A stretch of 64,000 nt of DNA, from assembly GCF_022605165.1 (NCBI RefSeq), contig NC_063073.1, positions 248,001 to 312,000 on the forward strand, written 5' to 3'. Below the pieces are notes generated by a model, which had not been told where the DNA came from, did not search any database, and saw only the letters and a program-made list of their open reading frames with translations. The translations under genes were made by a program, and so were the position numbers. The stretch is from Purpureocillium takamizusanense. Lineage: Eukaryota; Ascomycota; Sordariomycetes; Hypocreales; Ophiocordycipitaceae. Below are positions 57,383 through 62,925 of this stretch, piece by piece; the first letter of the stretch is position 1, and every line of letters begins with the position of its first letter.

Positions 57383-59170
57383 ATGGGGCCGAAGCGTAAA
57401 GCATCCCCGGGCTCCGACCCGCCCGCTCCCGCACCCGCCTCACCTCCTCTCCCACGACCTGACCGCGACTTCGCCTCGCGAGCGCACGATGCGAGCAACA
57501 GCACCGCCCGAAAGCAAGCCGCCGCGGACCGCCGCTTCCGCGAGCTGTACCACGCCCGCGCCCCAGACTTTGCGGACCTGTCGCGCCGCGATCCCAACTT
57601 TGCCGCCGTGTGAGCTGCGCCTCTACCCTTTTCCCATCATGTTGTCCCCTGCCTTTCCTCCTCCTCCACAACCCGGTCGTCGCTGGGGGGGGGGGGGGGG
57701 GAGGAGACGCGGGGTGCAAGACTGCTCAGGTCGCTGACGCTGGGCACGGCGTACCGCGCGGGGGGAGAACAGGACCAAGGGCCGCGAGCTTGACTTTAAC
57801 GACCCGAAGGCCGTCATGCAGCTCACCAAGACGCTGCTGAAGCTCGACTTTGGGATTAAGCTGGAGCTGCCAGACGACAGGCTATGTCCTCCGGTATGCA
57901 TGACGAAAAAAAAGACGGACTTGAAGGCTTGGTCAGGGTCGCTGATGAAAAAGTAAATAAAAGGTTCCGAACCGGCACAACTACATCCTCTGGCTCAAAG
58001 ACCTGCTCGACACCTCATCGTACAGCCCGCCCGGCCAGAAGCTCGTCGGCCTTGATGTTGGCACAGGGGCGAGCTGCATCTACCCCCTTCTCGGATGCAC
58101 ACAGCGGCCCTGGTCTTTTATCGCAACCGGTACGTCCACCACATTGCGGTTGGCAGCGGACCCTATATGGCTAACCGACTGTGAGGACAGACACCGACGC
58201 AGAGAGCACATCTTGGGCCAGGAAAAACGTCGAGCTCAATGACCTTGCTGCCCGCATCACCGTCTCTCATCGGGACCCATCCTCACCCCTCCTCCCACTT
58301 GACGACCTCGGCCTTACCTCTCTCGACTTCTGCATGACCAACCCGCCCTTTTACGCCTCTGAGAAAGACATGCTCGCTAGCGCGGCGCTCAAGGCCCGGC
58401 CACCGCGCACCGCCTGCACCGGCTCCCCCGCCGAGATGGTCACACCCGGCGGCGAGGTCGGCTTCGTGAGTCGCCTGGTCGACGAGTCGCTCGCACTGCG
58501 CGACCGCGTGCGCTGGTACACGGCCATGCTAGGCTTCTTGTCGAGCGTCGCCGATGTGGTGGCCCGGCTGCGCGACAGTGGCGTCGACAACTTTGCCGTC
58601 ACCGAGTTCGTCCAGGGGAACAAGACGCGGAGGTGGGCCGTGGCCTGGAGCTTCGCGCCCATGAGGCCGGCGCAGGCCGTCGCGCGCGGGACCAAGGCCG
58701 CGACCGCGAAGCTGGGCAGCAGCGGCAGCATCTTGCCGCCGCAGACGGAATACCACCTGCCCGTGCAGCCGCTGCCCAGTGACATTGGCGCATTCGTGCA
58801 GCATGTGCGCGATGCCATGGTCGCTTTGGAGCTCATGTCCTGGGAGTGGGACAGCGAGGCCATGGAGGGGACCGGACGGGCCGCGGATCGCGTCTGGGCG
58901 CGGGCGTGGCGGCGCAAGAAGAAGCGCGCGGAGGCAGAGGCCAAGGAGAAGGGAACGGCGAAAGCAGACGCAGAAGGAGAGGCAAAACAGAACATGGCCG
59001 AACCGGTCTGTGCGTTCGGGTTCAGGGTGCGGATGCGAGTAGCCCTCGACCACCTCGACGTGCAGTGTCGGTGGATGGAGGGCTTCGACGCCGTCGCGTT
59101 CGAGAGCTTTCAGGGGTTCCTCAAGACGACTGTAGAGGCGGCGACTGCTAGAGCGAAGGAACCCAAGTGA
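57383..59170 (+). CDS. METTL16-type N6-adenosine RNA methyltransferase
   Basis: Exons 57383-57609, 57773-57893, 57964-58129 and 58191-59170, 497 residues; introns are 163, 70 and 61 bases and every junction keeps frame. The N-terminus includes YHARAPDFADLSRRDPNFAAV and ELDFNDPKAVMQLTKTLLK, then LPDDRLCPPVPNRHNYILWL, the conserved METTL16 entry region. The SAM-binding motif is VGLDVGTGASCIYPLLG, and the catalytic NPPF sits in DFCMTNPPFYASEKDM. Human METTL16 and its homologues methylate A43 of U6 snRNA (and MAT2A mRNA in animals) in the nucleus, so a U6 role is the best guess. A Lys/Glu-rich insert (RRKKKRAEAEAKEKG) and a C-terminal domain follow. The first intron contains 17 consecutive G. Confidence 0.9.
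57685..57701. repeat. Homopolymer of 17 G inside METTL16 intron 1
   Basis: An uninterrupted G run in the first intron, likely variable between isolates and error-prone in sequencing. It lies 71 bases before the acceptor. Confidence 0.9.
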
Positions 59171-59317: not shown

Positions 59318-60136
59318 CTACTTTTCCAACGTGAACCCTTCCGGCAAGTGCTCGTTGTAGCCAGCCGCCACCAGCCGCTCCATGGCCGCCCAGACGTCGG
59401 GCGGGATCTCCTGCTCGACCTGGAACCCGCGCGCGGGGTAGTCGCGTATGCGGACGAGGTCCCCGACCATGACGTTGAGGACCAGACGACGGGGGTTTTC
59501 CGCGTCGGGGTAGTCTTCGAAGGCGTCGAAGCGCGGCGACGTGACGCACATGCGCACCGCCCCGTCCTCCTCGCCATCACCGCCATTGCCATCGCCATCG
59601 CCATCAGCGCCGGGCCACTGCCTGCGAAACGTAGCCCACGTGCGACGCTCCATGTACGGCTTCTGGACGAGGATGAGGGAGCGCGCGGGGACGCCCCGCT
59701 CGCGCAGCAGGGCGTGGGTGAAGCGGACGTTCTCGCCCGTGTTGGTCGCGCGCGGCTCGACGACGATGCGCGCGCCGGGGACGCCCATGCGGCGGGCCAC
59801 GGCGGCAAAGGCCTCGGCCTCGGGCAGCCCGCCGAAGAGCCCGCGCGTGAGCTTGCCCGAGGCGCCCGAGAAGACGAGCCACGGCGCGAGCCCGTCGAGC
59901 CACAGCTGGGCGGCGCGCGCGGCGACGCGCAGGTCCAGGCTGCAGAGGCAGAAGATGACGTCGGAGGGCTGCGGCGCGTGGTGGAGCTGGTGGTATTGGA
60001 AGATGAGCTCGGCGTCGTGCGCGACCTGCTGTTGCTGCTCTTCTTCCTCTTCTTGTTGTTGGTGGTGCCTTTGCTGTTGCTGCTGCTGCGGCGAGGTTTC
60101 GGTGGCGGTAGTGGCGGCCGAAGAGGAAGACGCCAT
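59318..60136 (-). CDS. DUF218 (YdcF-like) protein
   Basis: Single exon, 272 residues from the ATG at 60134-60136; another in-frame ATG at 60277 would add 47 low-information residues. The DUF218 core is visible as DVIFCLCSLDLRVAARAAQLW, PWLVFSGASGKLTRG, EAEAFAAVARRMGVP, RIVVEPRATNTGENVRFT, RSLILVQKPYMERRTWATF and LNVMVGDLVRIRDYP. Family members (YdcF, SanA, ElyC) bind nucleotides or act in envelope biology in bacteria; fungal cytosolic forms are uncharacterised. A polyQ/His/Glu tract (residues 17-38) precedes the domain, and a GDGDGNGGDGEEDG insertion interrupts it. It converges with METTL16, with 147 bases between stops. Confidence 0.85.
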   Translation of the reverse strand: MASSSSAATTATETSPQQQQQQRHHQQQEEEEEQQQQVAHDAELIFQYHQLHHAPQPSDVIFCLCSLDLRVAARAAQLWLDGLAPWLVFSGASGKLTRGLFGGLPEAEAFAAVARRMGVPGARIVVEPRATNTGENVRFTHALLRERGVPARSLILVQKPYMERRTWATFRRQWPGADGDGDGNGGDGEEDGAVRMCVTSPRFDAFEDYPDAENPRRLVLNVMVGDLVRIRDYPARGFQVEQEIPPDVWAAMERLVAAGYNEHLPEGFTLEK

Positions 60137-60437: not shown

Positions 60438-62925
60438 TCAACTCGCTAGTGGCCTGCGATCCGCTTCGATAAACCTCCTCCGCGCCTCCTCGCCCGCCCA
60501 CAGCGAGTGCGAATACACCGCCAGCGGCAGCTCCTCGTCCGCCAGCTCCCTGTTCGCGTCTACAAACTCTTCAAACGACCCCAGACGCCCATCACAGCCC
60601 ATCCACGCGGAGTGCAACCGCCTAGCCCAGAACGTCCTCTGCGTCACGCCGTCGACGCCCGGGCAGGGAACCTGCAGCGCGGCGGCCATGGCGCCCTCGT
60701 CCGACGTCTCCTCCGCCGCGAGGACGCGATAAAGGCGCAGCAGCATCCTGGCGTGGCTGTTGCCCTTGACCAAAGAGCCCTCGGTGTCTTCCAGCGCGAT
60801 GATCTCGGCCTCGTCAATCACCGCGGCGGCCATGAGGGCGAGGTCGTCTTCCGAACGGGAGGGCGGCTGGGCCTCATCATCGCTGGCTATGTCTGCTGCG
60901 GCAACGTCATGCGTACCAGACCCCCCATGACTTGGATCCAGACTCTCGATGAAATTTTTCGCGGCCCTCAGAGTCGGCTGCTGCGCACTCGCCATGCTAC
61001 TACTCCGCGGCGCCGTCTTCACCGCCAGGGCGTGCGGCAGCGGCTTCAGGTCCGGCTTCGCAAACGCCACGCGCGCGGGCACGCCCTCCCACACGACGCG
61101 CGAGTAGTACCCGCGCCACTCTTCGCCCGTGATCCCAAATATGTCCCTGAACTCGTCGAGCTCGATTTCCGCGCCCCCGCCGTGTGCAAGTCCGATGGCG
61201 GGGTTGAGACTCCTTCTGGTGTCCTCGGTACCTTCGCTGGGCGGCATGACGACGCCGCCGAGGCACGCGCGCACAAACTGGATCCAAAAGTGCGCCTTGG
61301 TTGCCGAGTACGGCGCGATGGTACGGTCCGTCGTGCGAGCGCGCATGATGGACGACTGCAGAGCGGCGAGCGCGTGCCCGAGAGCATCACCGCTGCCGCC
61401 TCGATACTCCTCGGTGCCTATCGGCTGTCGTTGCTTTTGCGCGACGGCGAGGGCAAAGCTCACGAGCCTATCACTCTCGTCGGGTTCCTCATGGAGACAC
61501 ATGGGCGTCGCTGCGCTGGTACTAAAGGGCATTGCGGAGATGGGCGGCAGGGACTGCAGGTCTGGAAAGAGCCAACGCTCGTGGGCGTCGGGCGAGAAGA
61601 GTCTATCCCGGGAGAAATAGTCCCTCCACAGGCCGGGGTCGGACAACTCGGGGGCATGGAGCAGCACGCTGGCAAAGTCCTCGCGTCTGAGCGGCCTGTC
61701 GAGTTTTGTTTCCCGGACGTACTTGGCTGCCGAGAGGTGGAGTTGGAGGAGCCAGAAGATTGTCATGGTGCTGTGTGGTCGTCGATGTTAGCGGGTTGGT
61801 TGGCTTTCATGTTGAGAAGCTCTTTAGAGGAGGAGCACTTGCCGGGGTGTTGCGTCGCCTAATCCATCCGTCTTCAAGGCCTCAAGGTGTCCTAAATGTT
61901 GGAGAAGCACATCTGCGCAACTCAATAGCGTCGTCGAAGCTGCGGCGCCCTGGACCAAACCAAAGAACCCTGCACGCAGGCGCATATAATGATTCCACTC
62001 CTGCAAGTCACCTCGCTCGAGCGCCTGCCAAAACTCATCCGCCGACAAGCCATCCGCATCGACCATCCGCTGCGCCTCTCTCTTCAAGTCATCCACGTCT
62101 GGACGGGGGACCTTAACCACGAGTCGCGACTCGACCGCGCTGGCTGCTACTGCTGCTGCTCTCGGCTTAGGCCCGTGCCGCAGCGTCTCCTGCACATGGT
62201 CCAGGACGACGTGCAAGTCCGCGTCGGAGCTCTTCGTGGCGCTCAGCCCCGGCAGGTTCAGGACGTCGACGGCGAGCTTCCCGGCGTACGTGGCGGCTTT
62301 CTCCTCGTAGCGCCTTGCGAGGTCGGCGACGTGTCGGCGTCTTTTGGCAGGGGGCAGGAGGTCCTGCTTGTTGAAGATGACACAGATGAAGCGCCCGTCC
62401 GCGTCGGCGAGAGTCTGCGCCACGCGGTTGAACTCGTCGAGCTGCTCGTCGCGGCGCTCGTGGTCCGCGCAGTCGTGGATGAAGATGATGTATTCTGTCG
62501 AGGGGATGTAGTGTCGGAACAGAGGGCGGATCCTATCTCCTCCTGTAGTTATACACCCCGTCGCGTCAGTTACGCACACAACAGAACGTTGCAAGCAGCA
62601 CGGGTCTTTTTTCTTCCTATCTTCGATCATGACCTGGCTACTACAAGTAATTGCACCGGGAAGAAGATCAGGAGCACCACGTACCTCCAATGTCCCACAG
62701 GACAAGGTCGAAGAATCCACCGTCGCGGGAGACGGTCTCGACGTTGAAGCCCACGGTGGGGATCGTCGTGACCGTCTCGCCCAGCTTCCAGCGGTACAGC
62801 AGCGTCGTCTTGCCGGCGGCGTCGAGGCCGACCAGCATACCGCGGCGCTCGGGCCCGCGACGGGAGAGCGTTGCGGGCAGGAGCCATTTCGCGAGAGCCG
62901 TGCCGCGGGTGACGAGTCCACTCAT
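60438..62925 (-). CDS. Arf-like GTPase fused to a long uncharacterised C-terminal region
   Basis: Exons 62925-62685, 62542-61843 and 61770-60438, 757 residues. The first intron is GTACGT...ACAG (142 bases). The second is a GC-AG intron, GCAAGT...GCTAAC...CACAG (72 bases), and gives an in-frame join ATPR to [12 protein letters not shown]. The Arf domain has P-loop GLDAAGKT (33-40), switch [10 protein letters not shown], switch [18 protein letters not shown] (77-92) and NKQD. Position 82 is Gly where Arf proteins have the catalytic Gln (WDVGGQ), and residue 2 is Ser, so N-myristoylation is not expected. Residues 200-757 are helical and unassigned, with repeated Trp/Tyr motifs such as [21 protein letters not shown] and [16 protein letters not shown]. 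Arf GTPases act in membrane traffic; this fusion could be a fixed-state scaffold (inference). If the GC intron were not used, two proteins of 319 and 442 residues would result. Confidence 0.82.

What the first reader, a model, noticed from the sequence alone, without database searches (positions are those of the whole stretch)
60438..62925. Arf-like GTPase fused to a 550-residue helical region through a GC-AG intron
Two frames that look like separate genes join in frame (total length divisible by three) if a GCAAGT donor at 61842 is used. A CTAAC branch site and CACAG acceptor are in place, and no GT donor gives the right phase. The result is a large Arf-domain fusion, unlike ordinary Arf proteins of about 180 residues. 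The C-terminal part has recurrent Trp/Tyr motifs and no recognised domain, so it could be an undescribed membrane-traffic or signalling module.
Basis: partly seen in the sequence, partly recalled or inferred. Interest (0 to 1): 0.8.

Follow-up and report, generated by a model that had tools for sequence, protein, structure and literature searches.

The report
Fungal Arl17: Arf GTPase with tail
Two neighbouring reading frames are really one gene for a long Arf-like GTPase of a little-studied family (Arl17) that was already described across eukaryotes in 2021 but whose function is still unknown.

Summary
On the minus strand, 62925-60438 joins into one 757-residue protein if a 72-base GC-AG intron (61842-61771) is removed. 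Eleven of 13 fungal records keep the junction as one continuous protein, and 15 of 42 ORFs found with the domain profile break off just behind the same residue, as unspliced genes would. The contig matches Purpureocillium takamizusanense by length. Its deposited protein is already a fusion but uses another donor and loses 52 conserved residues.

The interpretation "undescribed module" does not hold. An Arf-like GTPase followed by one to three non-identical copies of an uncharacterised domain, also found alone in bacteria, is Arl17 of Vargova et al. 2021. Here there are three copies, two of them degenerate.

One addition is not in that paper's main text: the catalytic switch-II glutamine is missing from all 85 fetched sequences in which the site could be read, Cys in 75.

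Best reading: a GTPase that hydrolyses GTP poorly and carries its own helical binding modules. Function is unproven. This is a new member of a known kind, with modest interest.

The parts
60438..62925 (-). Whole coding region of the fused gene, three exons, 757 aa plus stop; Arl17 orthologue
   Evidence: homologues; deposited model P0002 reproduced from the same DNA
62543..62684 (-). Intron 1, GT-AG, 142 nt, inside the GTPase domain just after WDIGG
   Evidence: the product [16 protein letters not shown] aligns without a break to homologues
62169..62853 (-). ARF-family GTPase domain (about residues 25-205, interrupted by intron 1): P-loop [24 protein letters not shown]; Gly in place of the catalytic Gln of Arf1 (Q71, numbering recalled); no Gly at position 2
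   Evidence: Pfam PF00025 E=1.9e-31 over residues 25-144; residue counts; end of the domain set by eye
61771..61842 (-). Intron 2, GC-AG, 72 nt, phase 2, inside the first copy of the tail domain
   Evidence: junction continuous in 11 of 13 fungal records; 15 of 42 ORFs break off at the same place
61539..62057 (-). Tail domain copy 1 (residues 243-391, interrupted by intron 2); best preserved, but W-x-H-x-x-H is W-N-H-Y-M-R and the His before T-x-T-x-F-W is Pro
   Evidence: Profile hit 6e-56 (the profile includes this copy); alignment
61032..61481 (-). Tail domain copy 2 (about residues 411-560), degenerate; borders by eye
   Evidence: Partial profile hit 3e-3 in the window protein (residues 532-560); 3e-9 to 4e-12 in Fusarium, Cladobotryum and Aspergillus homologues but only 2e-3 to 4e-3 in Orbilia and Grosmannia; copy 2 was not used in the profile; similar order of helices in the model of P0003
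60444..60836 (-). Tail domain copy 3 (about residues 626-756), degenerate; absent from the shorter Aspergillus and Cladobotryum proteins; upstream border by eye
   Evidence: Profile hit 1e-6 over residues 693-756, copy 3 not used in the profile; similar order of helices
61771..61998 (-). Alternative 228-nt intron used by the deposited model P0002; judged wrong
   Evidence: removes 52 residues in a stretch kept by homologues

Best explanation
The region holds one gene, the Arl17 orthologue of a Purpureocillium fungus: an ARF-family GTPase domain followed by three tandem, increasingly degenerate copies of the Arl17 tail domain, a mainly helical domain that also exists as a stand-alone bacterial protein. 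An intron inside the first copy, with a GT donor in some relatives (inferred), is GC-AG here, which explains why it looks like two genes. Most likely working (inferred): the GTPase binds GTP but, lacking the switch-II glutamine, hydrolyses it slowly, so it would sit mostly in the GTP state as has been argued for Arl13B; the tail copies act as built-in binding modules. The fungal copies are probably non-catalytic, since the His residues of the best conserved motif are partly lost. Likelihoods: single gene with GC-AG intron 0.95; Arl17 membership 0.92; poor GTP hydrolysis 0.5; tail as binding scaffold rather than enzyme in fungi 0.5.
For: Splice join and frame. Single-gene fusions in Purpureocillium, Tolypocladium, Cordyceps, Fusarium, Cladobotryum, Aspergillus, Grosmannia and Orbilia (that search scored only the 7994 candidates sharing most words, so the list is partial). 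Intron position shared. Copies 2 and 3 found by a profile not trained on them and a similar helix order in a full-length model of P0003, mean pLDDT 83.9. 85 of 93 hits to the tail of P0015 also carry Pfam Arf, among them glass sponge, rotifer, volvocine algae, dinoflagellate, cryptophyte, chrysophyte and chytrids. Stand-alone bacterial copies in 13 of 198 genomes of the phylum of a Saprospiraceae MAG, that MAG included. Of 148 fetched proteins examined, 85 show the switch-II site and none has Gln: C 75, R 4, S 3, G 2, W 1; in the same genome 8 ARF loci were fetched, the site was readable in 5 of them (4 genes), all Gln. Published Arl17 description; Arl13B precedent.
Against: No transcript data, so splicing is inferred. 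I could not compare sequences with the published Arl17 set (supplements not open to me); the paper says about 100 residues for the domain, whereas my profile has 151 positions. No experiment bears on GTP hydrolysis; a GAP could supply a catalytic residue. Window copy 2 is a weak hit on its own (3e-3). Three of the 15 ORFs that break off at the junction do not read as GTAYGT.
Confidence: 0.85

Rival explanations
1. Two separate genes: a 319-residue Arf-like protein ending at 61824 and a second gene starting at the ATG at 61766.
For: Both frames are open and the second has an ATG in place; some records split the gene there (P0024 of Colletotrichum starts at MTIFW).
Against: 11 of 13 fungal records read through the junction; the split would cut the tail domain in half; ORFs elsewhere begin or end at the same exon edge.
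Confidence: 0.03
2. One gene, but spliced with the GT donor at 61998 as in the deposited model (705 residues), either always or as an isoform.
For: The deposited protein P0002 is exactly this.
Against: It removes 52 residues including the W-x-H-x-x-H-type segment kept in the other fungal records; GTGGAA looks a poor donor compared with GCAAGT (judgement, no splice model run).
Confidence: 0.04
3. Arl17, but the tail domain is an active enzyme or ligand-binding unit switched by the GTPase, as its conserved W-x-H-x-x-H and H-E-T-x-T residues might suggest.
For: These residues are conserved in at least 80% of 78 non-fungal first copies, and H-x-x-H in 14 of 14 bacterial copies read.
Against: The window copy has Arg and Pro at two of the His positions and Tolypocladium lost both His of H-x-x-H; 11 of 14 bacterial copies have Asn in place of the H of HET.
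Confidence: 0.25

Closest known systems
Arl17 (Vargova et al. 2021, PMC8358228)
   Same: ARF-family GTPase with one to three non-identical tandem copies of a novel C-terminal domain; domain also alone in bacteria; present in certain fungi, protists and rotifers.
   Different: The paper's main text does not contain the words Ascomycota, Pezizomycotina, Aspergillus or Neurospora, nor glutamine or catalytic. Tail identity rests on architecture and distribution, not on direct comparison with their sequences.
Arl13B / Arl13
   Same: ARF-family protein with a long C-terminal extension and no catalytic glutamine (passages).
   Different: Arl13's extension is described as a coiled coil plus proline-rich region, and Arl13B is ciliary (listing); the Arl17 tail consists of copies of one helical domain.
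Canonical ARF-family genes of the same genome
   Same: Switch I of the PTxGxN kind and WDxGG.
   Different: Gln after WDxGG in the 4 genes read; ordinary Arfs are about 180 residues without a tail (recalled).
   Same: Same domain over nearly its full length.
   Different: Single domain in open frames of about 130-166 residues without a GTPase; function unknown; no Pfam or NCBIfam model hit for the four tested.

Membership tests
Arl17 | ARF-family GTPase domain | tested here: met
   PF00025 109.3 bits, cut-off 22.3
Arl17 | One to three non-identical copies of a novel C-terminal domain | tested here: met
   Three matches in the window protein: 6e-56, 3e-3, 1e-6; copy 2 weak on its own
Arl17 | Tail domain unrelated to described domains | tested here: inconclusive
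   No Pfam or NCBIfam hit to the tail over a cut-off; PDB sequence search best E=0.4; absence of a hit does not exclude a relative
Arl17 | Tail domain also occurs alone in bacteria | tested here: met
   L009 (Saprospiraceae MAG); 13 of 198 genomes, that MAG included
Arl17 | Sequence match of the tail to the published Arl17 tail alignment and tree | not testable with these tools
Arl17 | GTPase domain derived from Arf1 | tested here: inconclusive
   Besides the window gene itself, fungal homologue P0009 matches a GGQ-bearing Arf gene of the same genome best, 62% over residues 9-86; no tree against all ARF subfamilies was built
Arl13 | No catalytic glutamine | tested here: met
   Gly in the window; no Gln in 85 of 85 readable family members
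Arl13 | Coiled-coil plus proline-rich C-terminal extension | tested here: inconclusive
   No coiled-coil predictor was run; the tail is accounted for by copies of another domain
Ubiquitinyl hydrolase (name in deposited records) | Peptidase domain of a ubiquitin hydrolase | tested here: not met
   No such Pfam family among hits of the window protein nor of the 7 proteins

The most novel reading that the evidence does not exclude
Arl17 is an ancient ARF branch that gave up GTP hydrolysis as an off-switch: its catalytic glutamine is lost family-wide, usually to Cys, and it is covalently joined to copies of a bacterial-type helical domain, so that it works as a mostly GTP-bound scaffold rather than a cycling switch.
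Probability: 0.3. Interest if true: 0.6.

Novelty: new member of a known kind. Interest (0 to 1): 0.35.

Why it matters
It places a little-known eukaryotic GTPase family in filamentous fungi, including some Aspergillus species, where it could be tested by gene removal. It corrects a deposited gene model and suggests a GT-to-GC donor change in a shared intron. The absence of the catalytic glutamine from every family member that could be read gives a directly testable biochemical prediction for a protein family without any known function.

Full report
What is in the sequence. On the minus strand the ATG at 62925 opens an Arf-like frame. After a 142-base GT-AG intron (62684-62543) it runs to a stop at 61824. 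A second long frame lies at 61787-60438. Removing 61842-61771 (CG|GCAAGT ... CTAAC ... CACACAG) joins the two in frame: 2274 nt, 757 residues plus stop. The window is part of a fungal assembly of 35.6 Mb in 14 contigs. Its contig C6 is 2,695,859 bases long, the same as the contig of P0002, a deposited Purpureocillium takamizusanense protein.

Is the GC-AG intron right? P0002 is reproduced letter for letter from the window by a different donor, GTGGAA at 61998, with the same acceptor. But P0002 lacks 52 residues in a stretch that 11 of 13 fungal records keep; the two exceptions are P0002 itself and P0005. The partial record P0017 was left out of that count and is continuous too. P0005 reads THRQVTP at the junction, which fits unspliced GCARGT (inference). 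Of the 42 proteins found with the domain profile, 15 stop 0-17 residues behind the same H-K/R; 8 read 'YV' next, as a GTAYGT donor in the same phase would give, 4 stop at once, and 3 read YG, SV or YQ. These ORFs have no organism names; they are 49-90% identical to the Fusarium first copy over about half of it. P0021 and P0024 (Colletotrichum) start at MTIFW, the other edge of the intron. So the intron seems shared by related fungi, with a GT donor in some, and is GC-AG here. Non-canonical introns are a small minority in fungi: GT-AG is 98.7% in a survey (PMC7072748, passages read).

What the protein is. Pfam finds only the Arf GTPase and related GTPase families above their cut-offs. A profile made from 11 first-copy sequences plus three bacterial translations and P0058 finds three stretches in the window protein: 243-391 (6e-56; this copy is in the profile), 532-560 (3e-3) and 693-756 (1e-6). 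In the Fusarium homologue P0008 the second and third copies score 3e-9 and 6e-9; in Orbilia and Grosmannia the second copy is as weak as in the window (2e-3, 4e-3). In the model of the P. lavendulum homologue P0003 (mean pLDDT 83.9, pTM 0.45) each copy ends in a similar series of short helices. Aspergillus and Cladobotryum proteins have two copies.

How widespread. A search with the tail of P0015 gave 93 proteins, 85 of them also carrying Pfam Arf. Names among the Arf-bearing ones include Oopsacas (glass sponge), Rotaria, Volvox, Pleodorina, Polarella (dinoflagellate), Spizellomyces and Nowakowskiella, a record labelled chrysophyte, and Geminigera (cryptophyte, from its taxid); Gonium was found without an Arf call. 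The first search was capped at the 7994 candidates sharing most words, so its 16 hits are a partial list; one of them, P0016, has no tail domain. In a FastTree tree of 94 sequences the filamentous fungi group together, with Orbilia branching first (midpoint-rooted, support values not shown). Stand-alone bacterial copies occur in a Saprospiraceae MAG and, with it, in 13 of 198 genomes drawn from its phylum.

Known or new. Vargova et al. 2021 (PMC8358228; [quoted passage not shown] The window gene fits the architecture and distribution that I could test. I could not compare it with their sequences, and they give about 100 residues for the domain where my profile has 151 positions. Human ARL17A/B share only the name (recalled).

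What is added. Of 148 fetched proteins examined (P0001 and P0016 set aside), 85 show the switch-II site and none has Gln there: C 75, R 4, S 3, G 2, W 1 (a first count with a narrower pattern, window protein included, gave 80 of 149). The two G are P0002, the window's own gene, and P0013; the W comes from a Cordyceps record, P0007, that lacks the following stretch and may be mis-modelled. Eight ARF loci of the same genome were fetched; the site was readable in five, which are four genes, all with Gln (L002, L003, L004 = L007, L005). Arl13B also lacks it, hydrolyses GTP very slowly and was argued to be mostly GTP-bound (PMC4868535, passages). The words glutamine, catalytic and GTP hydrolysis do not occur in the main text of the Arl17 paper; supplements were not seen. 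Position 2 is Gly in 1 of 74 sequences tallied, so the usual Arf N-myristoylation is not expected (inference).

The tail domain. A two-copy model of P0069 is confident and mainly helical (mean pLDDT 93.5); what the structure searches gave is told under Tried and rejected. First copies of non-fungal members keep W-D-H-x-T-H-L-R and F-H-E-T-M-T-Y-F-W in at least 80% of 78 sequences. Bacterial copies keep H-x-x-H in 14 of 14, but the H of H-E-T in only 3 of 14. The window has W-N-H-Y-M-R-L and P-R-T-M-T-I-F-W. Loss of His at two of these positions speaks for a binding or structural role in this fungus, if the residues are functional elsewhere.

Mechanism. Shown by computation: one gene, intact nucleotide-binding motifs, missing glutamine, three tail copies. 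Inferred: slow hydrolysis, a mostly GTP-bound state, and tail copies that bind partners in cis. Cell role: unknown; no evidence here for membrane traffic specifically.

Noticed in passing
window 59321-60025, minus strand: A DUF218-type gene lies directly downstream; it matches residues 711-929 of the Tolypocladium record P0006 (65%, E 1.8e-98), where it is merged with Arl17, so gene order is conserved and P0006 is probably a merged gene model.
   Followed up: partly
P0082 with P0080, P0084, P0085, P0087, P0088: Arl17 in the glass sponge Oopsacas, with five unnamed relatives at 75-81% identity, four of them on contigs of 0.4-1.6 Mb; the 2021 paper knew rotifers as the only holozoans with it.
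   Followed up: partly
P0139, P0090: Records labelled chrysophyte and Ochromonas with the tail domain (P0139 with Arf), although the 2021 paper lists Stramenopiles as lacking Arl17.
   Followed up: no
P0002, P0004, P0014, P0028: Records named ubiquitinyl hydrolase or ubiquitin C-terminal hydrolase; no such domain in my scans of P0014 and P0028 nor in the precomputed Pfam lists of P0002 and P0004. Probably propagated misannotation.
   Followed up: partly
viral model A0A6N1P216 (Tupanvirus soda lake): A giant virus of amoebae appears to carry the Arl17 tail domain (Foldseek probability 1.00, E 1.7e-5).
   Followed up: no
L013, L014, L016, L017, L020, L022, L024: The bacterial stand-alone gene is convergent with a gene that I recognise from memory as RsmE-like in 7 of 13 loci examined.
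   Followed up: no
window 58175-59170, plus strand: Open frame with an NPPFY motif, likely an N6-adenine methyltransferase of the METTL16 kind (recognised from memory).
   Followed up: no
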